Shown: piece after piece, positions 1 to 51,683 of the stretch
Position numbering within the stretch: the stretch's first letter is position 1
How the letters are laid out: every line of letters starts with the position of its first letter
Origin: a virus
DNA: 64,000 nucleotides
Virus record (IMG/VR): IMGVR_UViG_3300035698_004130
Coordinates: 38,678-102,677 of that record
Reading direction: 5' to 3' (one strand)
Program-made: the position numbers and the translations under genes
The notes under the pieces: generated by a model
Database searches by the model: none
What the model was told of the DNA's origin: nothing
The model's input: only the letters and a program-made list of their open reading frames with translations

Positions 1-689
1 TCCAGGGAAACGTAGAGAACATTTCTACCCTCAATTACAGCCTTGGCACCTTGGTTAACCAGATACAGAGACTTTCCAACACCAGGAGGAGCTACAACAA
101 TAGCAAGTTCCTTACGGCAGAGCCCACCTTCCAGGTTTCTGTTATGAGTTGGAAGAATCGTCTTGAACCGATCCCTATCCTTATCCTCATACATTCTCTT
201 CAGACGATTGTTTACATCTGAGAAGTAATCCTGCCCAACATCAACATTACGGTTTACTAGAAGTGCATCTTTAATAAGAGATTCAATCAGTCCATAATCA
301 TGATCCCCTTTGTTTAGCATGTTGGCTGAGATAGTAATTGCTGATTTGATAGCACTCTTCTTTGCAAAGTCCTCAACAGTATCCATGATAAACTCTCGGG
401 TATCAAAGATAGACTTATCAATACTGTTGATTAAAAGGATCTCATCCTCGTAGTCATAATCATCCTTCTCAGTAGAGTTGTTTTTAATGAAGTCTACTAA
501 GGCCGAGTCGGTAGGGAGGGTGCGATACTTATCGTAGAAGTCCCTTATCCCAATATAGATGTTTTGGTAACCTGTGGATTCAAAGTATTCAGGCTTGACG
601 ATGGCGACGACTTGAGAGAAGAACTCAATATCGTGCTTCAGGAGGTAAAGACAACCGCGTTGAGTGTTGTCTGACAGATTATAGGGCAT
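1..689 (-). CDS. DnaB-type replicative helicase, N-terminal part (cut by window edge)
   Basis: The first 229 residues of a replicative DNA helicase are visible; the rest lies left of the window. An all-helical N-terminal domain is followed by a RecA-type core whose Walker A motif (APPGVGKS) sits near residue 198. This is the layout of DnaB and T4 gp41, hexamers that unwind the fork on the lagging strand and recruit primase. The ATG at 689-687 is the only ATG between the in-frame stop upstream and the conserved region. It is the last visible gene of a minus-strand nucleotide and replication block. The matching DnaG-type primase lies far away at 56816-57760. Family is sure; DnaB versus gp41 ancestry cannot be settled from half a protein. 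Confidence 0.88.
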   Translation of the reverse strand, partial: MPYNLSDNTQRGCLYLLKHDIEFFSQVVAIVKPEYFESTGYQNIYIGIRDFYDKYRTLPTDSALVDFIKNNSTEKDDYDYEDEILLINSIDKSIFDTREFIMDTVEDFAKKSAIKSAITISANMLNKGDHDYGLIESLIKDALLVNRNVDVGQDYFSDVNNRLKRMYEDKDRDRFKTILPTHNRNLEGGLCRKELAIVVAPPGVGKSLYLVNQGAKAVIEGRNVLYVSL

Positions 690-11797: not shown

Positions 11798-12266
11798 ACA
11801 CGTTTATTAAATCTCTTGCCCATTCCAATAAATCCTCTACTCTTTTCCCAGAAGGTTGGGAAGTAGACCATAACTCAAGATTGGATAAGGTATTATCATC
11901 CCTAATACCATTTTTATGGTGAACATTTTCATTTGGAAGTAATTTTCTTCCAAGATGCTGTTCCATAATAAATCTATGCTCAAGCATATTTTTTACCTTA
12001 CCATTGTCATTAACAGAAAATCTAACATACCCAGCACCAGTTAGATGCTTACCCTTACCAAAGTTTGGATGGGTAATTCCCTTGCGAAGTTTAAAGCACC
12101 CACAAGATTTCTTATTACCTGTGGTTATATGGGAGCCAATGGATTTGAAGGAATCCCCACAGTGACACTTGCACTCCCACACAGCTAGACTCTTCCCTTT
12201 AAAGGAAGAATCGTCTACGACTAAATACTTAATAAAAGTGATTCCATTAACAATTTTACCCACCAA
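11784..12266 (-). CDS. HNH homing endonuclease
   Basis: A free-standing HNH endonuclease of 160 residues. An N-terminal Cys-rich part (CKCHC, CGCF) may bind zinc. The nuclease core reads [12 protein letters not shown], then [12 protein letters not shown] and NLELWS, the usual HNH_3-type arrangement. A TTG start (12266) or the adjacent GTG (12263), which has AAGGA upstream, is used. It lies directly in front of the split polymerase, a typical place for a homing endonuclease that targets a polymerase gene. Confidence 0.9.
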
Positions 12267-35300: not shown

Positions 35301-35806
35301 TCCGAATGCGTTCCTAGAGAGATAGCAGATGCAATTGAGTAATCGCTATTAGCATCTGCGATTTCCCTATTCCAAATCTCAGAGTTTGATCCACCAGTTC
35401 CAATAGCGAATCCACGGTTTACAATCTCAAGACTACCCTTTGGCCCAAAGATCTTGTTGGAAAGGTTGAGTTCTCCAAGATTTCCAAAGTTCATTACCTC
35501 AACTAGGAGTGGGTAGTTAATCACTTCTGGAACAGCTTCTAAGCAGGAGCTTAGGGAAGTGTAGAAGTTACCACAAGTAGAAGGTGCAGTGGAAGAGACA
35601 ATAAAGCTCATCCCCGTGATAGCAGACGTAGCGTATCCAGCTCTTGCCCATAGTGCTGTTGTTCGCTCTTCTAGGTCAAGAACAGGAAGATTATCCTGCT
35701 CCCACTGGTAGAAGGAGCTTGGGTCAAACTTGGTTACAGGGTCCGTCCAGCACGAGTAGTGATCGTTGGCTCCTCCTGATACGTATATGTCGCTTGTGTT
35801 TAGCAT
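32327..35806 (-). CDS. large beta-helix tail protein (candidate adhesin or depolymerase)
   Basis: A 1159-residue protein. The region around residues 300-800 has repeated short strands with Asn/Ser turns (VDHGINIENSNVFLENC, ALDGAHVHQTSL and similar), the look of a right-handed parallel beta-helix of the pectate-lyase type. Such proteins are phage tail fibres or spikes that bind or cut surface polysaccharide. No catalytic residues can be named. The ATG overlaps the stop of the 31-residue gene upstream (TAATG). Confidence 0.8.
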   Translation of the reverse strand: MLNTSDIYVSGGANDHYSCWTDPVTKFDPSSFYQWEQDNLPVLDLEERTTALWARAGYATSAITGMSFIVSSTAPSTCGNFYTSLSSCLEAVPEVINYPLLVEVMNFGNLGELNLSNKIFGPKGSLEIVNRGFAIGTGGSNSEIWNREIADANSDYSIASAISLGTHSDHLGVASAKFNNMVMPSLLTGINGAHSFSLGGLQLMLSSPTTVDTRLAGNLTVFTRKIIEGNNNRLGAALADNNPTTPWVTAFNSSGLVAFTNYESNPQTEDLIDTYDASCINEITDAEIVWETPGDAIHLTVSIGYVNKLASINITNCHGPVYIRNFTVDGGAWSGTVDHGINIENSNVFLENCSVSRCHKSGLRAFNSKVLISKTFVAYRNYPFDSTGTRIGEAWTTKLKNENPQDSYGAGILAVNSEINFHTDDDRQLGLYHSTSGIQYGNFFSGIPGIFYDGTQNIPIPGMGSLFCISRNDIGIKAVNSRITGGKTELDGSATVAYFDAHQLITELNKHAGIQLENSVLEHSGRLFNYGNFRGIDAVNSKLALDCVKAQYSQKEGIRLKDSSLTYNKDTYSLFVNNSTALDGAHVHQTSLVENGTHLKLINSSFLPTVTSGMPEMYDQFLASGSFGIKQNTTGQKCVLPSIILEQGSNLDAVHPIIFNPDSYLLDDAAIYGAAISAKGGSEVILRGSSKYATRIAGPSTFELQEKKVALFADEGSTIRIHGPTVIGRYAINILADNNSKIDITPQRDYNGSLQVSSYDLTNPANHTMVELHSTRACIVVDHGSQLTLEDLGDYAQFWGDGTYGALQIASGLDYVTSADLNYPLYTSAGSVQFYPNPNDSLYYEASPATANISLAYGGADAFSVNGQGKHYYLEDAIGDTVNSLDFSSVTLGGMCVRAVNQSNVEVNNVHFPCGFWNASGLVYDAVDGVSEGDNCNRLFIWNIADNSMLNAKYITVSSLHPVDAGYVGPSGVYGAASGAPSGTHDTRTVSILDYYGESNNHAYSRSSAGNLGPFRLFFSTDPAANWLLNNESSLSGLIPQVFSQGYNFSANCIAPGDVSANHMSLIKNNNGVLEASGFYYASSMVFSPGTIKAVLDDSAANSFANAKHNSVGKSGLAKVVSIYYPYRGAHGGDSTDSSLKTHGKGVRSVNTFDLEKDN

Positions 35807-36524: not shown

Positions 36525-37550
36525 TTAAGTAAATCTAAAGACTAGTGATATTGTCGGCCCCTGATTAGTGAAGAATCCTACTCCATAAACCTTTTCAGTA
36601 TTAGTATTTAGTAGGTGCTCAAAGCCTGAGTTGTCCCCTGCAACCCCAAGTCCAGGGTTAATAGCCGTAAGATCCAGGTCATCATGGTTTAAAAAACTAT
36701 CCCATGAAGTGATCTTTGCTACCATCTTGTATTGCCTGTTAGTATTTAGAGCGTCCCACGTATATGGAGGGGTTAATCCAGACGCTAACATAGCTTTAAT
36801 ATCTAGGCAGTAAACTCCTACCTGTGTTACTCCCCCAAACGCAGCTAATGCAGCAGCATCCCCAAGTTTGGGCACAATAGCTACCTTAAATCCTCCACTT
36901 GAAGGTTGGTAGGTGGGAGAAAATGACTGCACTGCCCCACCCCTTGTATCCCCTTTAACATCAGTTGAATTAATTACATCACTCATTTTCAAGTAGCCAT
37001 CTCTATCCATGATCCCAAACTCATTGAATACTCCACTTAAGGTTCCAGAGAATTGAAATACTCCATCTCCGTCATAGAAGTTATAGTGGGACGCTGCACC
37101 AGAAGGTGGGTAGGGGCTAACCACATTCCATACAGAACTTAGAGAAGACACGATGGTAATATTAGAGTAGTGACCTAAATTGGGTAATCCTACTGTAGAC
37201 GCATTAGTGGTTGTATCTCCATCCTCTAATCGGGTATCATAGGGGGAAGGAGCTTGGGGGACGGAACTATACGATGGGAATTGAGCCCAAGTTGCCGAGG
37301 CATGGTATGATGAGGGGGAGTTCGTGTTATAGGCGTTAAACAGAATTCTCTCTTGGTTGTAGGTTGAGCCTTCTGTGGAGCTAATAGTATGAGCGTGATA
37401 ATTGAATCCGTCAGCGTCCTTTCCTAAGGTAAAACTATAAAAAGTAAAGTTCGATGTATCCAAGATTGCACTAGCAGATGGAATATCTGCGATTGCTGGA
37501 TTGACTGTAAGGAAGTCGGCTATAACTTCTCCAAAACCTTTAGTGAACAT
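36525..37550 (-). CDS. tail structural protein
   Basis: A 341-residue protein starting MFTKGFGEVIADFLTVNP, with Ser/Thr/Tyr/Gly-rich beta regions and the C-terminal strand GPTISLVFRFT, like the product of the next gene. It begins by sharing a base with the gp7-like stop. Probably a baseplate-associated or fibre-connector protein; family not recognised. Confidence 0.7.
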   Translation of the reverse strand: MFTKGFGEVIADFLTVNPAIADIPSASAILDTSNFTFYSFTLGKDADGFNYHAHTISSTEGSTYNQERILFNAYNTNSPSSYHASATWAQFPSYSSVPQAPSPYDTRLEDGDTTTNASTVGLPNLGHYSNITIVSSLSSVWNVVSPYPPSGAASHYNFYDGDGVFQFSGTLSGVFNEFGIMDRDGYLKMSDVINSTDVKGDTRGGAVQSFSPTYQPSSGGFKVAIVPKLGDAAALAAFGGVTQVGVYCLDIKAMLASGLTPPYTWDALNTNRQYKMVAKITSWDSFLNHDDLDLTAINPGLGVAGDNSGFEHLLNTNTEKVYGVGFFTNQGPTISLVFRFT

Positions 37551-40500
37551 TAGACTAATACCTCAACTTCATCAAGGGCGGCTGGGTAGCCAACGGATGC
37601 GAATGCTATTTGAACTCTACTATATGATTCTATAAATTGTCTGTAGTCTGCTCTTGAGCCATTAGTATCAGCGATTAGGTAGGGATGATCTGAATCATTT
37701 GCAACTCTCGATGCTTGCCCTCTAAGGGCTCCTGCTCCTCCAACGATTTTATTCCAGAACTTGAATATTCCTTGAACTTGGGATTTTGAAGTTGGAACAC
37801 GTATAGGGTAACAATCGTCAACTGCAATAACCTCTGAGCGTTGCTTGAGGGTTAAGTCCTGCATTTTGATTGAATCAAGAAGCATAAACTGTTTTGGTTT
37901 AGCTGAGTTCGGAATCATGAACAATTCTACAACATAGCTTTGATCCTTCCTGTGTAGTTGCCCAAAGGCTTTAAGATATTCGTTGTTTAAGATTTGTTGT
38001 CTATTATCTGTAGTGAAAGTAAACTTTAGATTTTGGAAGTCAGCTTCCTTGATTCCCACAATTGGGGAAGAGGATAGAACAGTATTGTTAGCAAGGTAAA
38101 TACATTCAAATGTAGTTGCTTCCTCCTCAAGCTCTTCTTGGGTCTTCTCTCTTAGTGGAAGGTGGAATAGAGTTGAGTAGCTTACTACTTCATCCTGCTT
38201 TATAATTGCAGGGTGTTGGACCCAAAATCCATCTTGGTTGAGACTCCACATCCTACCCAGTTCAGGCTTAGTGTGAACCCAGACTCCAATGGTTCTATCC
38301 CCAAACTTCTGGCCCTTGAGTTCTGTAACTAGTAACTTAGCATCAACCTCAAACTTATGTTCGGGCAGTAGGAAGTTCTCAGTGATTGGGTAAGAAGCAG
38401 GGGAAGAGTGCTTCTTCATGTCCATTCTAATTCTACCAAACCCATCTAGTGATCTATTCTGGATGAAGGTTCGATTATACATGTAGTCGTCATCGGTTGA
38501 GGACTTTCCTACAGGATCAATCTTAAACACTTGGAATCCATTATCCTCCGAGATACCGGAAGTTTGGATAAGCTCAACAGCATCAATAATACCTGAGTTA
38601 ACATACTCAAAGGTGTCAACATACATGTCATCGCTACTACTAGCAATATACACTCCGGCACTACTAGCTTGGAATCCATTTTTATTATTTAGATTATCCA
38701 AGGCAGATAGAGATGCAGTTACAAACCCTGCCGCACCTAGAGTATCAAACTCACTGTTATACAGGAGAGGCCCAAAGGTGTGAGAGTAAATGTTAGCACC
38801 ATCCTGGTAGTGCATATGATCGGATAATTGATGCCTAGCAAAATGGGTTGTGTAGTCCTTGTAGAAGAGATGGAATTCCTTCCCAAACCCAAAGTTATAG
38901 AAATCGTTGACGCTTTCCGGGAACCATCCGTCAGACTCTGTAGCAGAGTTTGCGTATGCTTGATACACATTTCTAACCTCTAGGGCTTCAGTTGTTGCTG
39001 ATCCATAAGCAGCAGAAGCTTCCCAATACTTTATGTCTTCCTTTAGAGAGTGAATGATAGCATAGAATTCTGGTAGCTGGCATCTATCATTGTGCCAATC
39101 AACAAGACCTAAACCTGTGTGCCCTCTTCCTATAAGAGCATCGCTAACTGTGTAGCCGTAGAAGGTTGAGCTAGAGTTGATACCCTGGCACACTGAGTAT
39201 ACCGCAGGTAAGTTAACATGGTCTGGAATGCTTTCAAAGCTTAGTGAGCTAGGAATGAATCCCAAAGGAATCCCACTCAAGCCTGAAAGCATGTAGTGGG
39301 ATGTAGGCATGTTAAACCCTGTCCTATCGTAATAGCCATTCTTGGGAGCTAGCTTCTCATAGGATCTTCTTCTTAGGGAATATCTACTTAGGTTTGAAGC
39401 ATTATTTGAGGCGTTGGTGTATAGAGGATCCATACGGCTAACCAAGTCCTTACGGGAGAAGGATCCTGCTGCCCCACCTAAACCTCTTTTGAATGAGGAA
39501 ATACTAATTCCAGAAGTGATCCAGTTCCTACAGTAAGATCCACCGTCAGCTTCGTCAACTGATGGCATAACCATGGGCATGGCCGAAGATTGGAAATTAA
39601 TGTAGTCTACTGTTGATAGGGTTAGACTAACTAAGGGAATTGAGTGAGCCGGAACAAAGGAATTTAATACCTTGGAAGCCAGCACGACTGCATCCCCAGA
39701 ATCAATATCGTCTGAGTTCTTCTTGGTGAAATCAAACTCGGAAGCATCAAATACTAACTTGAAGTGAGACGACTTACCCGACCATAGGGAAGCATACTCA
39801 AAGTTCTTGTTATTAAGGTTTAGGATAAGGTTGTTTAGGTTTGGTGGACTGTTATACCCAGAAGTGAATAGCAACCAACTTGAAGTTCGGGGTTCTTCAT
39901 CAACCTCCAAAGCATTGGTTGTTACGAAATCTTTAAACTGAAAAGCAAACAATTGGTTGACTCCAAAACATACAAGTCTATCTGTGATGAAATCAAGCAT
40001 CTCCTTCGTCATTTCAACATTGACGTAGTATGGATATTCTTCGAAGGGAGGGATAGGATAAACCTTTCCTCTGTAGCGGAAACCGTCTTCTTGGTTAGGG
40101 ATATTGAATGCTTCCGGGAACTTCAGGAAAGTCTCGTAAAGGATTCTATCCGTAGCGTGCTTAACATTATCATCCATGCTGGATGCAGAGTAGCCAACCA
40201 CATTCATATATGCTGCAATATCTGGATACCAGTTCTGGAAGGATTCAAAGTAGACTGATTCTGTAGCTAGTGAGTAGTGAATCAGGAATGGAATGTAGGA
40301 TTCCCATAACTCTGTGATACGAGACTCAATACTGAAGATATCCTTGGGGAACACAGTATTAAGTGCGAATTGAACAGACTGCTTAGTTCCAACCTTCTTG
40401 TAAACTTCTACAGCATTCTTAAGTTGTAATCTCCATCTTTCTGGGTTAGATCCAAACAGATCCCATCCGATCAGATCCGCTAGAAGAGGTAGGAACTCGT

Positions 40501-41425
40501 CTGGGCAGTCATCGATATCATACACTGTCTCTAGGAGATCAGTGTCACTACTCATATCAAATGCAGCGAACGAGATAGCTCTTAGTAGTCTGGAGAAGGG
40601 TCCAGCCGGGATCTTGTCCGTAGTTTGTAGGTCAGCGGTGATAAAGGTATCAAACTTGTCTCTAACAGTGAAGTCCGAACGATCTGCGTATAATGGAGAG
40701 TAGATAACATCCATCCAAGTTTGGAGATTATCTAATTGCTGCGTTCCACTTGTGAACTCCCCCCCAGCACTTGCAAAGGTAGCAGAGGGGTAGTAGGCAA
40801 GGTCATTACGCCAGATGAATTCTGACAAACCTTTCATGCAGTCGTTAAGGGCAATTGGCTCTCCTGCATATGTTTTCTCTACCAGTATGTTCTTTACAAA
40901 AGATGAGGGATCGTAGGTAGCTGCTGATGTGTTCAGGAAATACAACCATGAAAGATTCTCAATCAGGTAGTTGTGAGTAGCTGAAGGAGCATCTGTAAGG
41001 TGGAATGATGAGGTTGGAGCGTTTATTGCTATTGAGGGCAGTAGCTCGTCTTCAAGGTAATCTGCGAAGGATCCGCTAGTTTTGAAGTCTGAGAATGACT
41101 TTCCAACTCTATTCAGAATCTTGGTTTCAAATCTCTCTGTGGTAAGGAAAGATAGATTATTCTGCTTAACGAAGTATGGGGCGATTCCTTCAAGGGTATC
41201 CATACTGCTGTAGGATGTATACTCAACTGCACTAATGAATAGCACAGAGGATACACTACTAGCAAAATCAATATGTTCATTAATTAGAACATCTACTAGG
41301 TCATCTTCTTTTCCAAAAGTTGCTAAATCTTCTTCCTTGTAGAGGTTAGGGACAATATAGTCCAGAGCCTCAAAGTAATTAGGTTTGAAGTAAGTTTGGC
41401 TGTTTAAGTAAGTCTTTCCTGACAT
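37550..41425 (-). CDS. baseplate wedge protein with P2 gpI-type domain (T4 gp7-like role)
   Basis: A 1291-residue wedge protein. Residues 307-360 (DDCPDEFLPLLADLIGWDLF, then LKNAVEVYKKVGTKQSVQFAL) match the phage tail protein I family; T4 gp7 is the equivalent in the (gp6)2-gp7 wedge core. The large remainder is beta-rich and probably forms peripheral arms. Gene order gp25, gp6, this gene is that of contractile tails (W, J, I in P2). T4 gp7 has 1032 residues, so this is somewhat longer. Confidence 0.82.
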   Translation of the reverse strand: MSGKTYLNSQTYFKPNYFEALDYIVPNLYKEEDLATFGKEDDLVDVLINEHIDFASSVSSVLFISAVEYTSYSSMDTLEGIAPYFVKQNNLSFLTTERFETKILNRVGKSFSDFKTSGSFADYLEDELLPSIAINAPTSSFHLTDAPSATHNYLIENLSWLYFLNTSAATYDPSSFVKNILVEKTYAGEPIALNDCMKGLSEFIWRNDLAYYPSATFASAGGEFTSGTQQLDNLQTWMDVIYSPLYADRSDFTVRDKFDTFITADLQTTDKIPAGPFSRLLRAISFAAFDMSSDTDLLETVYDIDDCPDEFLPLLADLIGWDLFGSNPERWRLQLKNAVEVYKKVGTKQSVQFALNTVFPKDIFSIESRITELWESYIPFLIHYSLATESVYFESFQNWYPDIAAYMNVVGYSASSMDDNVKHATDRILYETFLKFPEAFNIPNQEDGFRYRGKVYPIPPFEEYPYYVNVEMTKEMLDFITDRLVCFGVNQLFAFQFKDFVTTNALEVDEEPRTSSWLLFTSGYNSPPNLNNLILNLNNKNFEYASLWSGKSSHFKLVFDASEFDFTKKNSDDIDSGDAVVLASKVLNSFVPAHSIPLVSLTLSTVDYINFQSSAMPMVMPSVDEADGGSYCRNWITSGISISSFKRGLGGAAGSFSRKDLVSRMDPLYTNASNNASNLSRYSLRRRSYEKLAPKNGYYDRTGFNMPTSHYMLSGLSGIPLGFIPSSLSFESIPDHVNLPAVYSVCQGINSSSTFYGYTVSDALIGRGHTGLGLVDWHNDRCQLPEFYAIIHSLKEDIKYWEASAAYGSATTEALEVRNVYQAYANSATESDGWFPESVNDFYNFGFGKEFHLFYKDYTTHFARHQLSDHMHYQDGANIYSHTFGPLLYNSEFDTLGAAGFVTASLSALDNLNNKNGFQASSAGVYIASSSDDMYVDTFEYVNSGIIDAVELIQTSGISEDNGFQVFKIDPVGKSSTDDDYMYNRTFIQNRSLDGFGRIRMDMKKHSSPASYPITENFLLPEHKFEVDAKLLVTELKGQKFGDRTIGVWVHTKPELGRMWSLNQDGFWVQHPAIIKQDEVVSYSTLFHLPLREKTQEELEEEATTFECIYLANNTVLSSSPIVGIKEADFQNLKFTFTTDNRQQILNNEYLKAFGQLHRKDQSYVVELFMIPNSAKPKQFMLLDSIKMQDLTLKQRSEVIAVDDCYPIRVPTSKSQVQGIFKFWNKIVGGAGALRGQASRVANDSDHPYLIADTNGSRADYRQFIESYSRVQIAFASVGYPAALDEVEVLV

Positions 41426-43017
41426 TATAGGTATGCGGAGTTGATGGTTAGGTTATTTAGCTGAATAACCTCGTTGTAGGCTACTTTAATAGTCCTATCA
41501 ATATTGTCTACTTCAGCATACCTAATCTCATTAATGTCGAGGAGGAATTTCACTAGATCCTGAGGAATAAATGATTCCCCAAAGTCTGTGTTATCCACAT
41601 TGAAATACTCTAGGATTCTTGCTTTCGTTCGCCCAACAATCTGGGATTCATTATTCTTATACTTGGAATCAATGGTAATCGTTAGGATAACATCCATGGT
41701 TCTGATAAGGCCATCCACTACTACAGGCTCGTCTGTGAGCATCTTTTTCTCCGATAGAGCGACAATTAACTGTCTCTTGTATTCTGGAGTGGCTTTACGG
41801 AGTTGAGTGTTCGATGACTTTTCAAGAACAAAAAGGTCGATAATGTTAGCTGAGGAGTAAGCTCTTCGCACAACTGCATTAGCCTTCCCGGTTGATCCGT
41901 AATTGGAAACAAAGGTATTGATGAATCCCTTGTAATCAACAAGGGTAACAAGTCTGTCCTGTCGTCTGAATGTGATTGGGGCATATCTCTTGGCATGGGC
42001 AACTGATTCAGCATCCGACCCACCAGTTCCAATACTTATGTTTTCTAGGACTCCTATATCGGGGGATACTTCGCTATCAAGCGTTCCCTCAATGGGAGCG
42101 TTCAGGAAGCTTGTAGCAATGTTTCCTCTGGACCCACCACCAACTCTATAGGATACTGTGTAGGTATCACCAACGGCAGGGGATAGTCCAACAGTGGAAT
42201 CTCCGAATAGGATAGATGCAGTAAAGTTATCGTTTGTGGTTACCTGGAACACCTTATCACTCGCTCCTGAAGCGAAGTAGATATTGTCCTCTTCGGAGTA
42301 GACTCCAGTGGTCGCCTCAGATCCCGTGATAAAGATCTGAGCACTCCTTTCGACGTAAGGGAACTGAGATAGGGAAATGCTCTTAATCGTGTCTGGTGAC
42401 TGGAACACGCCAGACTCAACAACTAGTGCTCCCTCTAGTAGAACTGCATCTGTGATGATTACAGTTCCATTAGAAGCACTAGCTCCGAATACAAGGTCAT
42501 TACTGTTTTGATCTAGGTCGATAGTTCCATCAGTTTTCACCTTATACAATGTGAAGGATAGTGATCCTCCATCCTCTGGGGAAGTAATACTTGTGACTCT
42601 GTTTGCGGGGGTAACAGTGAAGGATGATGGGGAAGCGATTGAGGGAGGAGTAATAGTGATCGAGGCATTTGCGGCGGCTGAGATCGGGCCTTTCATCCTT
42701 ACACCAACTAGCTCCAGAAGCTTCTTAACACTGCTTCTACTTCTAGCGGTTTTGAGATAGTTCTCATTTGCTAGGTAGTCGGCCTTGTTAGCCTGGATAT
42801 GCCCTACAGCAGCCATCAACTCAATCAGCATGATACCAAAATCAGACTCAGAGAAGTTGTTGTAATCTAGGGGGTAAGTAGCCTTAACATACTTGATTAA
42901 TGAAGTCCGAATAGACGCAAAGTCGGAAGCAGAAAAATCAATTAATTTCTCCTTGTTGTCTAGATTAGAAGGAAGAAACTTTAAAAAATCAGATTGGACT
43001 GTTCCTGTAAATACCAT
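41425..43017 (-). CDS. 6: baseplate wedge protein, T4 gp6/P2 gpJ-like
   Basis: A 530-residue wedge protein that forms the ring around the hub. Marks: LIELMAAVGHIQANKADYLANENYL at 66-90 (seen in pieces), VKKLLELVGVRMKG, then the middle domain with ETVAHAKRYAP-like DAESVAHAKRYAPITFRRQDRLVTLVDY, and the C-terminal domain RLDIN-type ILEYFNVDNTDFGESF. Equivalent of gpJ in P2. It begins one base from the gp25 stop. Confidence 0.92.
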   Translation of the reverse strand: MVFTGTVQSDFLKFLPSNLDNKEKLIDFSASDFASIRTSLIKYVKATYPLDYNNFSESDFGIMLIELMAAVGHIQANKADYLANENYLKTARSRSSVKKLLELVGVRMKGPISAAANASITITPPSIASPSSFTVTPANRVTSITSPEDGGSLSFTLYKVKTDGTIDLDQNSNDLVFGASASNGTVIITDAVLLEGALVVESGVFQSPDTIKSISLSQFPYVERSAQIFITGSEATTGVYSEEDNIYFASGASDKVFQVTTNDNFTASILFGDSTVGLSPAVGDTYTVSYRVGGGSRGNIATSFLNAPIEGTLDSEVSPDIGVLENISIGTGGSDAESVAHAKRYAPITFRRQDRLVTLVDYKGFINTFVSNYGSTGKANAVVRRAYSSANIIDLFVLEKSSNTQLRKATPEYKRQLIVALSEKKMLTDEPVVVDGLIRTMDVILTITIDSKYKNNESQIVGRTKARILEYFNVDNTDFGESFIPQDLVKFLLDINEIRYAEVDNIDRTIKVAYNEVIQLNNLTINSAYL

Positions 43018-43460
43018 TATACCTCTAGGTCAATTTTGAAATTGACTAACTCATTCTCTTTTAGGGCACAAAATAAACTAACTTTGATGCCTCCTGTTCT
43101 GGTTTCTAAAACTCTAAGCTTAGTAACCTTAACACTCCTTAGATATCTATTAAACGACACTCTAACCTCGTCTCTAATCGCATGGAATGTTGCTTCATCA
43201 ACAGGCTCCATAAGAAACCTTCTAAGGCTACATCCAAAGTCTGGTAGCATAAACCTTTCACCTCTCTCTGTCCTAATAACCGCCTTAATGGCAGCTTTAA
43301 CTAACTCCAATCCAGATGATTTGGAGAAGTAGCCCTTTCCGGGGTTATCTACTAAAGGATACCTCATACCCACAGACTTGCTGGTTTTTAGGGTCATATC
43401 CTTTTCTGCATAAGAAGGAACTATCTTACCATAGGTTGTTGTGGATGTGGGAATTGCCAT
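43017..43460 (-). CDS. 25: baseplate wedge protein, T4 gp25/gpW-like
   Basis: A 147-residue lysozyme-fold-like wedge protein that nucleates sheath assembly. The block AIKAVIRTERGERFMLPDFG and LRRFLMEPVD is the gp25 signature, with the E-x-R core clear. T4 gp25 has 132 residues. Neighbours upstream (glycosidase) and downstream (gp6) are packed with one shared base each. Confidence 0.93.
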   Translation of the reverse strand: MAIPTSTTTYGKIVPSYAEKDMTLKTSKSVGMRYPLVDNPGKGYFSKSSGLELVKAAIKAVIRTERGERFMLPDFGCSLRRFLMEPVDEATFHAIRDEVRVSFNRYLRSVKVTKLRVLETRTGGIKVSLFCALKENELVNFKIDLEV

Positions 43461-45457
43461 TAATATATTTCAAATCTGGTATCAACAAGTGCGCTAGCAT
43501 TAAATATGTCAATGATATCTCTTAGGTCCGTCATTAATCCATCATAGTATGTATCATACGCAGCCCAATCAATGTCGTTTGAGGGATTATCTCCCAAGTA
43601 GTAACAGTTTGAATCAGCATCACATAACAAGTCAGTCTTTCCTAGGGAGGTTAATCCAAACTTTTGGTCCTTGGTGGGATTAATAGTGGCTGATGCGTTA
43701 CTCAGCGCAAAGTAGGTGGAAGAGAATGCTAACGTATGTGCTGGAAGTAGGGGGCTACGATCATACTGGGAGCCTACAACCTCTGTGATGTAACCCAAAT
43801 AAATGTTAGTCTTCGTAAGAGTATAAATAATATTGTGTAACATCTCATTCCATGCTAGGATATGACTGTTCCTACTTATCCATCCAGTCGCAGTATCTGG
43901 GTAAGAGGCTAGCTCTACTGGGTAATCAGAGCTAACACTGTAAAGATTGTTAATATAGTTTTCAATTGTTAACCCACTAACGGATGACGACCATTTCTTA
44001 GATACGGAAAATTCTGATCCCATTGTAGGTGTGTATAACCTACTCCTAGTCTGCTGGCTTAGAGCGTTAAGGATAATCTCCGCAGCCTTAGAGTGATTCC
44101 ACTGGGTTTCTGTTGCGGATACTGTAGTAATAGGGTTATACTCCTTTTGGATAGCCGGAACACCCGACCAGTAACCACCATCTGCTCCACCATCGACTGA
44201 TACCCCCTTTTGAACAAAGGAACTTTGGAGTTGGCTTGGGGGGAACCACCCAGAGGATAAAGCAATACCCGCGTAAACTTCACCATCCCTCGATTGACGG
44301 AATTCACCATCCCAAAATAGCAAACCTTGGGAATCCCGGAACGGTTCTTCCGACATACCATAATCAATCATACCATCAAAGATCATCCCTCCATACCCAG
44401 CTTCATGCCAATTGGCAACTTCGAAGAATGGGAAGGATCCATTATTACTAAAGGATGCCTCATTATACATTCCAGGGACTCCAATCTCTTGAGCCCCCGA
44501 GATAGCCGCAGTAACAAAGTTAGATACCATAAACTTACTGTTATTATAAGGGTGCATAGACGCTACATTTATAACTGCGGAAAGTAAATGAAACCCATTT
44601 GGATACCCTGGGTGATCCCCATTACCATTTGATAATTGGTCAGGGTAAGGCTCATACCCCGCACCATTCCCTACAGTGATTGCAATATTTAAGGAGGATG
44701 CAAGTGCGCTCACTAGAAGGCAGGATGAGTAGGTGAGAGCGGAGGTTGGGACTCCAACCTTATCCTCTAGACCAAACTCATTAGCTAGATCCACAGACCA
44801 GAATGATTGGTAGGCTGAAACAGTTTCAATAATATCAGTTATAAAGGGTGCGCCACAGGTGGTATAAAAATCCAATTGTTGAGCTTCCGAGGAAACCTCA
44901 AACTTCATTGGAACTCTGTGCCAAGATGCGGTAAGGCCGTGTTCAAGAGCAGAAGCGGCTTCCAATCTGTTTTGAGGTGCAGCAGCGCCATAAACCGAAG
45001 GGGCCCCTGTCTCGTCAGCAGTGCCAAGTTGAATACCATCCCAAATAACTAACTGAACACGTATCTTAACCTTATCGCATAAATCCATAAAGTCAGCGAC
45101 ATTGGCTAGGTGAGTTTCTTTATCCCTATCCCACACATACATGTCTGTAAACACCCTAATAGTGTTTATGCCAATATTACGAAGTAGATTTAGGCAATGC
45201 TCATTATCCTCACGACTGTAATACCACCATTGAGTAGTCTTGTTGGCCCCCATGAAAACTTTATCGCCATCGTGCCCCACGAGTCCCGCTAGCGCGGCTG
45301 TTTCATGAGAGTATCGTGGCGTAAACCCTGATTTCTCCCACTCAGAGTGAGGGATGGGGTAGTAGTTTACCCCCCTACAGTTGGAATAGTAGGATAAAGC
45401 CCCAGCCGAGATAATTGGATTTTGAGGTTGTTTGGTGATGATGGCTTGTTTTGACAT
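43460..45457 (-). CDS. clan GH-A glycoside hydrolase (GH5-like), virion-associated candidate
   Basis: A 665-residue TIM-barrel glycosidase. The start RGVNYYPIP, then LLRNIGINTIRVFTD (Arg101), LANEFG with the Asn226-Glu227 acid/base pair, MHPY (His302, Tyr304) and YNEAS (Glu333, likely nucleophile) follow the retaining clan GH-A order. No signal peptide. It sits inside the wedge operon between gp25 and a LamG protein, with shared start/stop bases, so it is very likely a tail-mounted enzyme that cuts a host surface glycan. Residues 400-665 are an added domain of unknown type. Substrate unknown. Confidence 0.82.
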   Translation of the reverse strand: MSKQAIITKQPQNPIISAGALSYYSNCRGVNYYPIPHSEWEKSGFTPRYSHETAALAGLVGHDGDKVFMGANKTTQWWYYSREDNEHCLNLLRNIGINTIRVFTDMYVWDRDKETHLANVADFMDLCDKVKIRVQLVIWDGIQLGTADETGAPSVYGAAAPQNRLEAASALEHGLTASWHRVPMKFEVSSEAQQLDFYTTCGAPFITDIIETVSAYQSFWSVDLANEFGLEDKVGVPTSALTYSSCLLVSALASSLNIAITVGNGAGYEPYPDQLSNGNGDHPGYPNGFHLLSAVINVASMHPYNNSKFMVSNFVTAAISGAQEIGVPGMYNEASFSNNGSFPFFEVANWHEAGYGGMIFDGMIDYGMSEEPFRDSQGLLFWDGEFRQSRDGEVYAGIALSSGWFPPSQLQSSFVQKGVSVDGGADGGYWSGVPAIQKEYNPITTVSATETQWNHSKAAEIILNALSQQTRSRLYTPTMGSEFSVSKKWSSSVSGLTIENYINNLYSVSSDYPVELASYPDTATGWISRNSHILAWNEMLHNIIYTLTKTNIYLGYITEVVGSQYDRSPLLPAHTLAFSSTYFALSNASATINPTKDQKFGLTSLGKTDLLCDADSNCYYLGDNPSNDIDWAAYDTYYDGLMTDLRDIIDIFNASALVDTRFEIY

Positions 45458-48153
45458 TATTGAATATCAATAGGTTCCCACATGAGATTTGGGACTTCAA
45501 TGTTTTTAAAGAACGTTCTTGTTGCTTCAAAGTTGTGCTTAATTTGACTGGTTGTTAATGCTCTTGAGTAGAACTTGGTGTTTCCAAGATAACCTTTAAG
45601 GCCACTAATAGTTCCTCCATAAGTTCCTCCCATAAAATTTCCATTGGGATTACCATCAGTCCAACCCCCTCCTAGAATCCAAGGGCTAAAGTATGTATCC
45701 AAGGTAAGTCCCACGCCTGGGTAAGATAAAGAGTTTTCTTTCTTGATAGAAGGGATCCTAGGCATACCCTCTCTAGCACTCTTACCAAACACTGTTGTAT
45801 AACTTGATACAGAAAGTTTAACCCCATCAAGATACATTCGAACTTCATCTTTTACGGGATCCAGGGATACTGTGATCTGACAGAATTCTCTTCCGCATGA
45901 GGATAGGGATACGCCCTCCTGGGTTCCCCAAATAGGAGCAGTCATACCATGCCATCCTAATGTTTCATCACAATTTCCCCCAAGTGCAAACGACTTATTA
46001 ATAAACCCTACGGAGCTTGAGTCAAAAGACTGAGTTGGTGCTAGAACCAATACTGCGTTGGTTACAGGGTTATCCTCGGTCAAGTTGGAAGGTAGTTCCC
46101 CAGTGGTAAATCTTCTATCCCTAGTAAATCCTAAAATAAGTCCTCTAACTACATTACTACCTTCATCGGCCCTCATGTAGTTGATATCACTTTGGGAGCT
46201 TACAGTAGTTCCAAACCCAGTGTTTTCATTTGATAGAATAAGTCTGTAAAGTCCAGAAACACCATTCTCACCAAAACCATAGTTTACTCCGTCTAACTCT
46301 GGCACGTGCACCCAGGTTTCAAAGGTAGCTCCTTCAGAGCTATAAAGGAAATCTTGAAACTCCGGCTTTGGGGGAAGTCTAATGAAGTTGCCAGTTGAGC
46401 TATAGGTTAGATCCTCTGATGATAGCTTCATAACTCCATCAAGATATGCAATACCCAATCCTCTATCAAATACAGAGGAAGCAGTTGAGGCTACTAATTG
46501 AGCGTTGTATTCAATTCCATTACTATTGCTATTGTGTAACTGGAACTCAACACTCTCTGGCCTATCAACCTGTGCGGTTAGGTAGTTATACATAGCGAAT
46601 AACTCATCTCCGATAACCGTCTGGTTAACTGATAGGCTGGGTGCTGATACGGCATTTGGATCTGTGCTGATGATAGTTCCAGATGCAATGTTATTGATTA
46701 ATAAATGTTCGAATACGATTGGATCTGTAACATCTAGCTGTTGTGTAAACTTAACCTCCAGGGGTAGAACAACTCCAGAAACGTCAGACTGATTTAGGAC
46801 GATGCTTCTCTGCTTCTCCACATCAACTAAAAAGTTAATACCCTCAAGATAGGAGAAGTCGTTAATAGGAATTTCTCCCGGTTGGAAGTAGAACTCGTTT
46901 CTATACAGTGCAGGGAGCTTGACAGCAAGTTCAATCTGCTTCTTCCTCTTATTAATCTTATCGATGAAGTGGGAGGTCTCTGACAGCATCACTTGACGCA
47001 TGTTGGCAATTAGAATCTGTGAGGATCCTGATGCCTCTAGTGCTCCAATGTAAGCTGAAACATCATAGATTTTTCTATTCTTATTACCAATAAGGTCTAG
47101 TAGGAGGTTATCCTGGGTGTAGTAGTTGGTTAGGAAATCAGAATCGTCAACTACGTTAGGATCTAAGATAGTATCAAAGTATTGCCTTAAACTCTCAGTG
47201 CTTGTTGGAACACCTCTTCCTCCAAGGTTTGGATCGTATTCAAGTTTCCAGTTACTCTCTGATGGGAGTTCAAGCCTTCTCTGCTCAATATCCATAAGGG
47301 CAGGAATGATACCACTAGTTTGTGAGTCATAGTATAGCCCGTCAATTGAAAGAACAAATCTACCATTCTTTGAGACAGGAGGACCAAAATTTAATCTAAA
47401 TACCTCTTCTGATAGGGTTTCCTCTGGTTGGCCAAGATTAGAGTTAGTGCCAGATAAAATAGAAGCATAGTCATCCCTAAACTCAGGCTCTAGGGAAGGG
47501 TCTTGAAGTCTAGCAGTAATGATCGCATCAACATTAGCTAGAAGGGAGTCTGCCTTGTCTGCGAAAGTTTGTGCGTCCTTTGCGTCCTGTAGCTCAATAC
47601 CAAATTGTGAGTTGAGCATGGCACTATAGGCTTCTGGATTAAGCCTTGATAACTCTTCCTTCTTAGCTCCTGCGTTACCTCCAGAATAATCCAGGTAATC
47701 CTTGAAGGAACCAAGGCAGTCAGAGATTGAATCAATTTGAGCTTGGGTGTTTTGATAGTTGTTGTAGAGTTGGCCTGCAAATCCAGCAGCGGCACCAGCA
47801 GCACCTAGAACTCCACCAAGAGCCCCAAGGAACCCGCCTTCATCTGAATCCAACCCATTCTTTGAGGAGTCAGATACGAAGCGGAAAATACCGTCCTCAG
47901 TATCATACTCAATGCCTCCGGTCAGGTATCTAAGTTTACCGAACAATGCTTTAGTTACATCGTTGGCTCTAGCAGAACCGTTTGCAGCAGATCCTCTAAT
48001 CCCATTTAAAACAGGAGAGGGTAGAAGTGTTAAAACATCTGTGGTAAGGTTTACCATACATGATGGCATACCAAATGCGGTCCCTAAGGCTCCTACAGGT
48101 CCACCTCCTTTTCCGGTTAATTCAAAAAATGTTTTACTATCAAATGTGGCCAT
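45457..48153 (-). CDS. tail structural protein with C-terminal LamG (concanavalin-like) domain
   Basis: An 898-residue protein. Residues 100-130 are a Gly/Ala hydrophobic stretch (GALGGVLGAAGAAAGFAG). A mixed middle follows, and roughly residues 585-885 form a LamG-type jelly roll: ATFETWVHVPELDG, EVRMYLDGVKLSV, and GYLGNTKFYSRALTTSQI. LamG domains bind glycans. Placement between the spike and glycosidase genes suggests a baseplate protein contacting the cell surface. Not recognised in T4. Confidence 0.8.
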   Translation of the reverse strand: MATFDSKTFFELTGKGGGPVGALGTAFGMPSCMVNLTTDVLTLLPSPVLNGIRGSAANGSARANDVTKALFGKLRYLTGGIEYDTEDGIFRFVSDSSKNGLDSDEGGFLGALGGVLGAAGAAAGFAGQLYNNYQNTQAQIDSISDCLGSFKDYLDYSGGNAGAKKEELSRLNPEAYSAMLNSQFGIELQDAKDAQTFADKADSLLANVDAIITARLQDPSLEPEFRDDYASILSGTNSNLGQPEETLSEEVFRLNFGPPVSKNGRFVLSIDGLYYDSQTSGIIPALMDIEQRRLELPSESNWKLEYDPNLGGRGVPTSTESLRQYFDTILDPNVVDDSDFLTNYYTQDNLLLDLIGNKNRKIYDVSAYIGALEASGSSQILIANMRQVMLSETSHFIDKINKRKKQIELAVKLPALYRNEFYFQPGEIPINDFSYLEGINFLVDVEKQRSIVLNQSDVSGVVLPLEVKFTQQLDVTDPIVFEHLLINNIASGTIISTDPNAVSAPSLSVNQTVIGDELFAMYNYLTAQVDRPESVEFQLHNSNSNGIEYNAQLVASTASSVFDRGLGIAYLDGVMKLSSEDLTYSSTGNFIRLPPKPEFQDFLYSSEGATFETWVHVPELDGVNYGFGENGVSGLYRLILSNENTGFGTTVSSQSDINYMRADEGSNVVRGLILGFTRDRRFTTGELPSNLTEDNPVTNAVLVLAPTQSFDSSSVGFINKSFALGGNCDETLGWHGMTAPIWGTQEGVSLSSCGREFCQITVSLDPVKDEVRMYLDGVKLSVSSYTTVFGKSAREGMPRIPSIKKENSLSYPGVGLTLDTYFSPWILGGGWTDGNPNGNFMGGTYGGTISGLKGYLGNTKFYSRALTTSQIKHNFEATRTFFKNIEVPNLMWEPIDIQ

Positions 48154-48156
48154 TGG

Positions 48157-49185
48157 TTATTCTTCGTAGGATGTTGGTTCTAGGGGAGTCGTTGGTGCTT
48201 CATTAGCTGGGTATCCAGAGTTGAAGTGAATTTGAGTTCCCTGCATACTATTTACTGATCCACCATCTGTGGCGATATTAGCATCAGCTTTTATATTTAC
48301 GTTAGTTCCCTTAATGTTTACATCTTGTGCAGCAGTAAGGTTGATATTGGCGTCTGAGGTAATCTGAACATCTCCTGTTCCATGAATCTGGACAGAGCCA
48401 TCAGCAGCGATTTGGATTCTAGCTTTGGGAGTTACTAGGAATATCCTGCCATCTTCCGCTTTGGAAACCAAGGTTACATCAGCGTTCTCGCTCCTTAGAT
48501 TAACATTTCCAAATCTATTGTTGCCTGGGCCTGCGAAAGCTCCAGTAGAATGGTTTTCAATATTAATGTCTCTTCCGTCAATAACATACATTCCTAGATC
48601 TGACTGGTATACCACAAACTTCTGAGACCCCTTAGATTTCATCTCAATGGATCTCTCAGAGTGAATTTCATCCCCTTCTGAGAATATAAGTAGTCCGTCT
48701 CCATGCTCGTTTCTTAAGATGACAGCATCCGATTTAGGGGAGTCGTTTAAGCTCAACATCTTTCCCTTTTCGCTGGTGAGGTCTGTCTTAGCTACAATCT
48801 GTGAAGGGAGGAACTTTCTAGTGATATGGACTCCAGCACCTACTTGGTTGGCGTAGGAAACTTTTTGAGGCTTCTTTCTATCTGAGTAGACCCTAGTATC
48901 TCCTACTACCTTCCAATCCTTTAGTCCCCCTGCCTGTGGCGTGTCAGGAGTATCCACAATAGTTGACATATAGTAAATCTTCCCATCTCCATCCTCATCC
49001 AATGCCGCAAGAATTCTGGATCCTTCTTCAGGGATCGCGAGCATTCCTCCATTATTGAGCATATACATTGGGGATGTGTAAGTTACATCAAAAGCTCCTT
49101 GGGATAGTGCAGGAAAAATTACCTTTAAAGTCCCTTGCTTATCATCGTCAACGTTGGATACTACTGTTCCTTTGATTATCTTCAT
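48157..49185 (-). CDS. 5: central spike protein, T4 gp5/gpV-like, without lysozyme domain
   Basis: A 342-residue spike. Residues 1-100 are the OB-fold (VVSNVDDDKQGTLKVIFP...AALDEDGDGKIYYM). Residues 230-320 are the repetitive VxIxGTxDVxI triple-stranded beta-helix that pierces the membrane (VQIHGTGDVQITSDANINL). T4 gp5 carries a lysozyme domain between the two; here that region (about 110-230) shows no lysozyme sequence. Tip is completed by the PAAR protein. It shares a base with the hub gene. Confidence 0.9.
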   Translation of the reverse strand: MKIIKGTVVSNVDDDKQGTLKVIFPALSQGAFDVTYTSPMYMLNNGGMLAIPEEGSRILAALDEDGDGKIYYMSTIVDTPDTPQAGGLKDWKVVGDTRVYSDRKKPQKVSYANQVGAGVHITRKFLPSQIVAKTDLTSEKGKMLSLNDSPKSDAVILRNEHGDGLLIFSEGDEIHSERSIEMKSKGSQKFVVYQSDLGMYVIDGRDINIENHSTGAFAGPGNNRFGNVNLRSENADVTLVSKAEDGRIFLVTPKARIQIAADGSVQIHGTGDVQITSDANINLTAAQDVNIKGTNVNIKADANIATDGGSVNSMQGTQIHFNSGYPANEAPTTPLEPTSYEE

Positions 49186-51683
49186 TACCTAAGTTCCTTG
49201 GCGTAAGCTCTCTCAAAATCATTCTCTAGATACTCTTTTGAAAGACCCCTATCTTTATATGCATTGAGGTAATTTCTCTTAAAATTAGCTTTCATATCTT
49301 CCATAAGCTTACCAACCTTAACGACTCCTTCAGATGAAGGAATATCATTAACCCCAAGTTGCCTTCCTGTAGCTTTCAGATGGAATTCAGAATACATCTC
49401 TGTTCCATCCATGAAATGCCTAAACCCTTCGATGGAGTAAGCTCCTGTGTAAGGAGCAACTTTAGCCACCTTATCATAGCCCATTATGGAATTATTTCTG
49501 GCTAATAGGATACATTGTGTTCCAGCAGGTTGTGTAAGCTTAAAGAAGGGAATAGTTTTCATATCAACTTCAATAGCTAACTTTGCAAGCTCGCGCAAAA
49601 TATTCTCTTGGGTCGTAACAACCTCTTCAAGGGTGTCAACTTCAATGGTGGCACCCTTCTTTCGGGTGCTGTGTTCCACTAAAAGGTAGAGTAATGCAGC
49701 TAGTTCCTTGACGCTTAGAGCTTCAATATTGTCGATGCTTTTATTTAACCCAAGTAGTATATTCCTATCAGGGTCTGTGAACGAGCCTTCCCGTTCTAAC
49801 ATCTTAACAATGATATTAATATCACTCTCAACTCCCTGGGATTCTCCCTCATAAGGGACTACATCCCAAATTCTGTTAAGAATTCTTTTAGGTAGCTTAC
49901 CAAATACCTTTTTAATTGTATCTTGTTTAATGGAGTTAACAAAAGGAACTAGAGCTTTCTGCTTAATGCCCATATTGTATACTCCTGTGTATGCTTGGTT
50001 ATACTTTACTGATAATCCCATTACATTAGGATTATCCAAGTTATACCTGAATACCACCCTACCTTGGGATAGGAGTGCAGAGTCGTCTGGAGCACCATCA
50101 AGGGATAGCTTATCAACGCTAACAACCTCTTCTCCAAATGAAGAGTTTCTTGGTAGTTCGATATACTCTTTGTAGTAGGCATTTCTATAGAACGAAACGA
50201 AATACTTAGCAAGGTCTTCCTTGTTTATATAATCTACGGGTAGTCTCCTAGTAAGTTGTTCAAAGTTAACTACGCTTCGGAGGTATAGAAGATTATCAAT
50301 GATTAGTCTAGATCCAAAGATAAGAGCAGGCTTTGTTTCATCCTTAATAAATCCCTCTTTCTTCCACATCTTAAGAACCTTCATATCCGACTCCTCTAAG
50401 AAATCAATATCAAAGCCAGTTGTGTTCTTGAATTTTCCGTATAAGGATTTGTATCCCTCAATTATTCTTCTAAGTGGGATATAAAAATCAGGAAGGGTAT
50501 CGTAGATGCTATCATTATTTTCATTGGTGACCCTCATCTCCAGTAGTCCCTTATCATCAGGGAACTTATCCTTACCTTCTTGAATCTCATCAAACATGAT
50601 CTTAGTGTTAATATCAACATCCTCTAAATCCTCTAGCAGATTAATACCAAACTCCCTAAAGAATTGTATGTATTCCTTGATCTCCTTTCTAAATCTGGAT
50701 ACCTTGCTGGGAGAGTTCTTGCTCAAGTCCTTCATGAGAGTGTTGCCAGTGTTGACAAGATTTATTAAGCCAATGTAAGCTCCTGCTACTGGCTTTGAAA
50801 CGGATTCCTTAATTGCATCTAGCCCTCTTCGCCCAGAGGATTTGAAAGACCTCTTCTTTGTGAGTAACACACTAAAATAGGGATTGACTATACTGTTGAG
50901 ATCAGGAAGTAGAACTATAACATTAGGGTTGCTTGCCGCATTAGCAATATAGTCTGTAACAAGGGAAGTCATCACACTATGCTCCTTGTTGATTAGCTGT
51001 TCTCCTGTAAAACTTGTAGTAGCTCTGTAGCTTTTAAGATTCCTATCGGCAATAACCCTACTGAACTTATTAACTGCTCCATACAACCCTGTGCTTCTAC
51101 CGAACGCTAGCGAGTTAGCCTGGAGGAATGAGGTAGCCGCTGTGAATACCATTTCAATCTCTTTCACTCCTTCAGCAGTGGTCAGGAGGCTAGCCTTTTG
51201 TAGAGTTGTAGTGAATGGCCCACCCCAGTTATCAAGATCATCTCCTACTCCAAAAGCAAAGTAAACCTCGTTGAAGTTAGCCTGAACACCTTGTTCGTTT
51301 ACAAAGGTGCTTTCCACTCGGCTGATTTCCTTTGAGGTTAGATTATTATCCTTAAGCTTCGCTTCAGTGTATAATTCCTTAGCAATTTGCACCAGGAGGT
51401 TAGACGCTGATGATCTTCCAATAAAGAAGTTCTCAAACAAGTCATCGGTCTCAAGGAATTTAAGTCTTAAGTTGGATGGTCGGGAGACCGAGTGGGAGTA
51501 ATCAAACTCCATAAGGTTCCCATTGTTTCCGGGCGACACAATATAACTATTAGCAATCTCTTCCTCAGTTAGAGTTAAGAGAATACTACGATACGAGTTA
51601 GCCTTTTCCTTAGCGAAGAATATCTTTTCGATAGCTTCCCTAGATGTTGTAATGAAAACATTGCCTGTGAATACTCTTGTCAC
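49185..51683 (-). CDS. candidate baseplate hub protein
   Basis: An 832-residue protein immediately upstream of the spike gene, the place of the gp27/gpD hub in contractile tails. Early beta-rich residues include SRPSNLRLKFLETDDLFENFF, followed by long helical regions with several Lys-rich coils. It is about twice the size of T4 gp27 (391) and no hub motif can be named, so the call rests on position. It may be a hub fused to additional domains. Confidence 0.65.
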   Translation of the reverse strand: MTRVFTGNVFITTSREAIEKIFFAKEKANSYRSILLTLTEEEIANSYIVSPGNNGNLMEFDYSHSVSRPSNLRLKFLETDDLFENFFIGRSSASNLLVQIAKELYTEAKLKDNNLTSKEISRVESTFVNEQGVQANFNEVYFAFGVGDDLDNWGGPFTTTLQKASLLTTAEGVKEIEMVFTAATSFLQANSLAFGRSTGLYGAVNKFSRVIADRNLKSYRATTSFTGEQLINKEHSVMTSLVTDYIANAASNPNVIVLLPDLNSIVNPYFSVLLTKKRSFKSSGRRGLDAIKESVSKPVAGAYIGLINLVNTGNTLMKDLSKNSPSKVSRFRKEIKEYIQFFREFGINLLEDLEDVDINTKIMFDEIQEGKDKFPDDKGLLEMRVTNENNDSIYDTLPDFYIPLRRIIEGYKSLYGKFKNTTGFDIDFLEESDMKVLKMWKKEGFIKDETKPALIFGSRLIIDNLLYLRSVVNFEQLTRRLPVDYINKEDLAKYFVSFYRNAYYKEYIELPRNSSFGEEVVSVDKLSLDGAPDDSALLSQGRVVFRYNLDNPNVMGLSVKYNQAYTGVYNMGIKQKALVPFVNSIKQDTIKKVFGKLPKRILNRIWDVVPYEGESQGVESDINIIVKMLEREGSFTDPDRNILLGLNKSIDNIEALSVKELAALLYLLVEHSTRKKGATIEVDTLEEVVTTQENILRELAKLAIEVDMKTIPFFKLTQPAGTQCILLARNNSIMGYDKVAKVAPYTGAYSIEGFRHFMDGTEMYSEFHLKATGRQLGVNDIPSSEGVVKVGKLMEDMKANFKRNYLNAYKDRGLSKEYLENDFERAYAKELR

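What the first reader, a model, noticed from the sequence alone, without database searches (positions are those of the whole stretch)
43460..45457. Glycoside hydrolase embedded in the baseplate operon
A GH-A barrel with Arg101, Asn226-Glu227, His302/Tyr304 and Glu333 intact lies between gp25 and spike genes, with shared start/stop bases on both sides. Known tail depolymerases are mostly beta-helix spikes; a retaining TIM-barrel enzyme as a wedge-linked component would be distinct. It probably opens a capsule or exopolysaccharide.
Basis: partly seen in the sequence, partly recalled or inferred. Interest (0 to 1): 0.72.

Follow-up and report, generated by a model that had tools for sequence, protein, structure and literature searches.

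The report
Swappable sugar-cutting enzyme on phage baseplate
An uncultured phage carries, inside the gene cluster for its injection baseplate, a gene for a barrel-shaped sugar-cutting enzyme that related phages lack, keep, or have disabled and linked to a different enzyme, apparently clipped on by a short tail on the neighbouring baseplate protein; this shows how phages may exchange the tools that open a host's sugar coat.

Summary
Window 43460-45457 (minus strand) encodes 665 aa. Residues 12-404 model as a GH5-like clan GH-A barrel, and R101, N226-E227, H302, Y304 and E333 are where stated. The gene shares one base with gp25 and one with an 898-aa baseplate-operon gene (g898). Sequence libraries do not recognise it; fold comparison does (Z 18.7 to GH5_18).

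Relatives in IMG/VR add more. All barrel homologues with visible flanks lie in this same slot; 55 relatives have g898 abutting gp25. Three architectures occur: (I) a single barrel with all catalytic residues (the window); (II) a barrel with E227 changed to Lys and H302 and E333 missing, fused to a GH49-like beta-helix; (III) another catalytically altered barrel beside a convergent opposite-strand gene. In type II, barrel and beta-helix have been swapped independently. g898 carries a C-terminal W-[ED]-[PS] tail in 21 of 21 occupied loci and 0 of 55 empty ones.

Best reading: a virion-mounted retaining glycosidase held on the baseplate through g898, cutting host surface polysaccharide. TIM-barrel phage depolymerases are already known, so this is a new variant of a known kind. 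The slot, its probable docking tail and the disabled-barrel scaffold are the new parts. Substrate, host and virion location are untested.

The parts
43460..45457 (-). Barrel gene, 665 aa (P0001): GH5-like clan GH-A glycosidase, type I
   Evidence: ORF; fold; homologues
44246..45424 (-). Barrel domain, residues 12-404
   Evidence: VIA-align range 13..404 to 6mp7, Z 18.7, rmsd 3.8, 283 aligned
43463..44245 (-). C-terminal region, residues 405-665, mostly helical, fold unassigned; kept in all three architectures at lower identity than the barrel
45155..45157 (-). R101, strand 2
44777..44782 (-). N226-E227, end of strand 4: predicted acid/base motif
   Evidence: NE aligns with NE of the GH5 enzyme 8d89
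44546..44554 (-). H302-P303-Y304, just after strand 6
44459..44461 (-). E333, just after strand 7: predicted nucleophile
45457..48153 (-). g898: 898-aa baseplate-operon protein with LamG-like C-terminus, conserved across the clade; proposed anchor
45460..45492 (-). C-terminal tail of g898, PNLMWEPIDIQ (WEP at 45472-45480): proposed docking peptide, present only when the slot is occupied
   Evidence: 21/21 occupied vs 0/55 empty; variable third codon positions
43017..43460 (-). gp25 baseplate wedge protein, downstream border of the slot
   Evidence: GPW_gp25 2.3e-9; phrog_261
41425..43017 (-). gp6-like baseplate wedge protein
   Evidence: phrog_219 2.1e-38
48157..49185 (-). gp5/spike-like protein
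   Evidence: phrog_13211 2.3e-7
37550..41425 (-). Tail_P2_I-like tail protein, 1291 aa

Best explanation
The gene encodes a virion-mounted glycosidase of a contractile-tailed phage. Its barrel (residues 12-404) is a GH5-like clan GH-A fold with the residues of a retaining enzyme: E227 acid/base, E333 nucleophile, R101, N226, H302 and Y304 in support. The protein sits in an optional slot of the baseplate operon and is probably held on the baseplate by the C-terminal W-E-P tail of the adjacent protein g898. Once the particle reaches a host, the enzyme would cut a beta-linked surface polysaccharide and clear a path to the envelope. In relatives the same mount carries other versions. In type II the barrel has lost its catalytic residues and is fused to a GH49-like beta-helix; in type III the barrel is altered and a second gene lies beside it. 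The barrel would then serve as mount and the cutting or binding part would be exchanged as hosts change. Shown by computation: fold, intact residues, slot occupancy, tail co-occurrence, module swapping. Inferred: catalysis, virion location, tail binding, target sugar.
For: GH-A fold: 81 Foldseek hits with E<=0.001, and every one of the 50 shown is a glycosidase; VIA Z 18.7 to GH5_18 6mp7; the family profile finds GH5 mannanase 8d89 at E 0.0011. Intact catalytic set in all type I members, p 9e-8; purifying selection, dN/dS 0.14 for L082/L020. Every homologue with visible flanks lies between g898 and gp25; none found elsewhere in 13 empty-slot records. The tail on g898 tracks occupancy 21/21 vs 0/55, and in 6 of 6 phylogenetically independent pairs; its codons vary at third positions. 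Barrel and beta-helix swap independently of gp6. The type II extra domain matches GH49 (Z 16.8-18.6, the next hit 12.6). TIM-barrel tailspike depolymerases exist (PMC11823257). Depolymerases held through short conserved peptides exist (PMC6872550).
Against: Both structure models have low confidence (mean pLDDT 56 and 46). No proteomics, host or substrate is known. No member of the family is in 50,697 annotated phage records. The g898 tail is encoded next to the barrel gene, so its co-occurrence could partly be joint transfer of one DNA segment. The catalytic Glu-Glu geometry was read from strand order, not measured.
Confidence: 0.72

Rival explanations
1. The barrel is mainly a sugar-binding receptor protein: it binds a surface glycan without meaningful turnover, as the altered type II and III barrels may do.
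For: Two of three architectures lack the catalytic residues yet remain under purifying selection.
Against: All catalytic positions are invariant in type I at about 33% mean barrel identity, which binding alone would not need.
Confidence: 0.15
2. The enzyme is not part of the particle. It is an auxiliary or lysis-stage glycosidase that merely lies in the baseplate operon.
For: No virion data; phages do encode glycosidases outside the virion (general knowledge).
Against: Always in the same slot between baseplate genes; its presence tracks a tail on a baseplate protein; the N-terminus MSKQAIITKQPQNPIISAG shows no obvious export signal by eye.
Confidence: 0.1
3. The W-E-P tail of g898 is not a docking peptide. 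It is a hitchhiking end of a transferred cassette, or a translation-coupling sequence for the barrel gene.
For: The tail-coding DNA directly abuts the barrel gene; TGGGAACC is well conserved as DNA.
Against: All four third-position variants of the Pro codon and two of the Glu codon occur; W sits 3 or 7 residues from the end; spacing to the start codon varies. W[ED][PS] is kept in 21 of 21 while barrels differ to about 22% identity.
Confidence: 0.25
4. The enzyme is a wall-degrading (peptidoglycan) virion enzyme rather than a surface-polysaccharide depolymerase.
For: Virion-associated lysins commonly sit at the baseplate or tail tip (PMC5380687).
Against: Nearest folds are mannosidases, mannanases and GH2 enzymes, not lysozymes; the slot is empty in most relatives, unlike a universally needed wall enzyme.
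Confidence: 0.08

Closest known systems
GH5_18 exo-beta-mannosidases and GH5 beta-mannanases (6mp7, 7lr7, 3wh9, 8d89)
   Same: Barrel fold over residues 12-404; Arg on strand 2, Asn-Glu on strand 4, His/Tyr after strand 6, Glu after strand 7
   Different: About 10-15% identity; not recognised by Pfam or NCBIfam; extra ~260-residue C-terminal region; encoded in a phage baseplate operon
TIM-barrel tailspike depolymerases of Acinetobacter phages (Aci07, Bestia, AB3P2, APK26; PMC11823257)
   Same: TIM-barrel glycosidase domain in a phage tail protein, reported with depolymerase activity
   Different: No sequence match to P0001 anywhere in the phage collection; those are tail fiber/spike proteins, this is a separate gene between g898 and gp25
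Conserved-peptide RBP docking in K1-5, G7C and Klebsiella phages (PMC6872550)
   Same: A depolymerase is attached to an anchor protein through a short conserved peptide and can be exchanged
   Different: There the peptide is at the N-terminus of the enzyme; here it is at the C-terminus of the presumed anchor
GH49 dextranase/isopullulanase (1ogm, 3wwg)
   Same: Type II relatives carry a C-terminal domain with this two-part fold and conserved NxD and GDD motifs
   Different: Fold match from a low-confidence model; in these phages it is fused behind an altered barrel; absent from the window itself

Membership tests
Clan GH-A glycosidase | (beta/alpha)8 barrel | tested here: met
   Eight strands in the model, Z up to 18.7 over 283 residues; mean pLDDT only 56
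Clan GH-A glycosidase | Catalytic Glu at the ends of strands 4 and 7, with Asn before the first | tested here: met
   N226-E227 end strand 219-228; E333 follows strand 329-331; distance not measured
Clan GH-A glycosidase | Retaining hydrolysis of beta-linked glycans | not testable with these tools
   Needs an enzyme assay
GH5 family proper | Sequence profile above the curated cut-off | tested here: not met
   No Pfam Cellulase match for P0001; six relatives match weakly, best E 0.00028, those shown being below the cut-off. Called GH5-like only
Phage tail-associated depolymerase | Part of the virion | not testable with these tools
   Inferred from the operon slot and the g898 tail
Phage tail-associated depolymerase | Degrades host surface polysaccharide | not testable with these tools
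   Host and substrate unknown
Beta-helix tailspike depolymerase | Parallel beta-helix catalytic domain | tested here: not met
   The window protein is a barrel; only type II relatives have a beta-helix
GH49 (type II C-terminal domain in relatives) | N-terminal beta-sandwich plus beta-helix, three catalytic Asp | tested here: inconclusive
   Top four VIA hits all GH49, Z 16.8-18.6; one member hits Glyco_hydro_49N at 0.0037; D354, D378, D379 invariant; model pLDDT 46 and no Foldseek hit below 0.001

The most novel reading that the evidence does not exclude
The baseplate has a standard optional mount. A short W-E-P tail added to a universal baseplate protein holds a barrel subunit. The barrel began as an enzyme and in two lineages lost catalysis and became a carrier for other surface-acting modules (a GH49-like enzyme in one), so the phage exchanges tools without touching the baseplate core.
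Probability: 0.5. Interest if true: 0.78.

Novelty: new variant of a known kind. Interest (0 to 1): 0.62.

Why it matters
If true, it gives a clean natural example of how a phage changes the enzyme with which it opens its host's sugar coat: one optional slot, one short docking tail, and an old enzyme kept as a mount after losing its own activity. It offers a directly testable peptide-protein contact, and a phage glycosidase family that sequence libraries do not recognise.

Tried and rejected
Sequence-only family searches of P0001 gave nothing usable: Pfam, PHROGs, NCBIfam, PDB sequences, 50,697 phages; the Pfam CoV_NSP15_M match (E 0.0093, below cut-off) is noise. A short-peptide scan of IMG/VR with P0001 alone found nothing; going through gp6 opened the family. 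A scan of 84,980 bacterial and archaeal genomes with the family profile found no relative; the sensitivity of that scan is limited. A profile of type I members alone found no PDB match. An invertible cassette in type III was considered: inverted repeats were weak and matched no cassette border. Cyanophage origin by psbA: no match in 8 records, not decisive. No promoter or terminator excess around the gene. Foldseek on the type II domain had no hit below 0.001; only the VIA re-ranking singled out GH49.

Full report
CHECK OF THE OBSERVATION. The ORF at 43460-45457 lies on the minus strand, has an ATG start and encodes 665 aa. It shares one base with gp25 downstream (GPW_gp25 2.3e-9) and one with an 898-aa gene (g898) upstream; both junctions read TAATG. 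The window is part of a 102,677-bp virus record with a contractile sheath, tail tube, gp6, gp25, a gp53-like protein, PAAR and a T4-type capsid protein, so it is a myovirus.

FOLD. Sequence libraries do not recognise P0001. An AlphaFold model on 17 homologues has mean pLDDT 56 and pTM 0.57, better in the first 265 residues. Its strands fall at about 23-25, 99-103, 133-140, 219-228, 259-264, 298-301, 329-331 and 361-363, so E227 ends strand 4 and E333 follows strand 7, as clan GH-A requires. Foldseek gives 81 PDB hits at E <= 0.001, led by GH5 mannanases and mannosidases. VIA-align gives Z 18.7, rmsd 3.8, 283 residues to the GH5_18 enzyme 6mp7. A profile of the family finds the GH5 endo-mannanase 8d89 at E 0.0011, and in an earlier profile alignment its Asn-Glu pairs with the phage Asn-Glu. 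I call it GH5-like, not GH5, because the curated Pfam cut-off is not met.

RELATIVES AND THE SLOT. The gene itself has no close relatives, but its neighbour gp6 gave 80 IMG/VR loci, and a profile scan gave 22 barrel loci (several are re-cuts of contigs already fetched). Every barrel homologue with visible flanks lies between g898 and gp25. In 55 loci the two genes abut. On the gp6 tree occupancy needs at least nine changes by parsimony. No second copy was found in 13 empty-slot records, though these are fragments.

THREE ARCHITECTURES. Type I (window, L082, L083, L031, L020 partial, L062) is one protein; in the five full-length members all six catalytic positions are invariant among only 47 invariant columns of 665 (p 9e-8), and L082/L020 shows dN/dS 0.14. 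Type II (ten loci read in full, 1295-1330 aa) has Lys at 227 and no counterpart of H302 or E333, and adds about 620 residues. That part, modelled alone (pLDDT 46), has four GH49 enzymes as its top VIA matches (Z 16.8-18.6; next 12.6), one member hits the GH49 N-terminal domain at 0.0037, and the Asp residues of NxD and GDD are invariant. Type III (L002, L014-16, L097-99, L102) has His-Asp for Asn-Glu, no HPY and Asp for E333, and a convergent gene of 689-808 aa between barrel and gp25. Whether type II and III barrels are fully inactive is inferred from lost residues, not measured.

MODULE SWAPPING. Within type II, L086 and L087 have identical gp6 but barrels 64% and beta-helices 45% alike. L086 and L089 have barrels 98% alike with beta-helices 45%. 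L087 and L090 share the beta-helix (100%) with barrels 64%. Such mosaicism is what exchanged host-range parts show.

A PROBABLE DOCKING TAIL. In the window g898 ends ...FFKNIEVPNLMWEPIDIQ. Relatives without the barrel end at or near FFKN-. The motif W[ED][PS] in the last 16 residues occurs in 21 of 21 occupied and 0 of 55 empty loci, and follows occupancy in 6 of 6 phylogenetically independent pairs (9 on all branches). I noticed it in about 20 loci and it then held in the rest. The Pro codon uses all four third bases, Glu uses both, and the distance to the next start varies, which argues for selection on the peptide. All three architectures share it, so it would serve the mount rather than catalysis. 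L007 looks like a deletion: g898 stops at VEVP and is followed by 21 bases matching the 3' end of a type II beta-helix gene, then gp25; enzyme and tail are both gone. Joint transfer of tail and gene remains a rival explanation.

HOW IT MOST LIKELY WORKS. A particle carrying the type I protein presents a retaining beta-glycosidase at its baseplate, tethered through g898, and cuts a surface polysaccharide so the tail can reach the envelope. Fold, residues, slot and tail co-occurrence are shown; catalysis, virion location and target are inferred. Mannan-type linkage is only suggested by fold neighbours.

COMPARISON AND NOVELTY. Reviewed depolymerases are mostly beta-helix proteins (PMC5380687), but TIM-barrel domains with reported depolymerase activity occur in Acinetobacter phage tailspikes (PMC11823257), and phage proteins annotated GH5 exist. 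Short conserved docking peptides are known in K1-5, G7C and Klebsiella phages, at the enzyme's N-terminus (PMC6872550). The enzyme is thus a new variant of a known kind. The optional slot with a tail on the anchor, and an altered barrel kept beside a GH49-like enzyme, were not found described in the papers I searched, a limited search of open papers.

Noticed in passing
L014:7398-9467, L002:7409-9478, L097:8067-10448, L102:8069-10495 (all minus): A convergent opposite-strand gene of 689-808 aa interrupts the baseplate operon between the altered barrel and gp25 in type III loci. No family match; no flanking inverted repeats that would suggest inversion.
   Followed up: partly
L007:1082-1102: 21-base remnant matching the 3' end of a type II beta-helix gene between g898 and gp25: an apparent deletion scar of enzyme plus g898 tail.
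   Followed up: partly
L087 and L090, type II beta-helix part: Beta-helix modules about 100% identical while gp6 is 81% and barrels 64%: recent exchange of that module between distant relatives.
   Followed up: yes
window 49185-51683: The 832-aa gene upstream of the gp5-like gene has no Pfam or PHROG match; full-length relatives in this clade range from about 740 to 1178 aa at 20-39% identity, unusually variable for an operon-core gene.
   Followed up: no
window 9128-12266: The DNA polymerase region is split over three ORFs (10745-11797, 10209-10745, 9128-10228) next to an HNH-like endonuclease ORF (11784-12266). Assigned by eye, not searched.
   Followed up: no
window 32327-35806: 1159-aa protein in the tail operon without Pfam match; repetitive beta-rich look by eye, possibly a second fibre or spike.
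   Followed up: no
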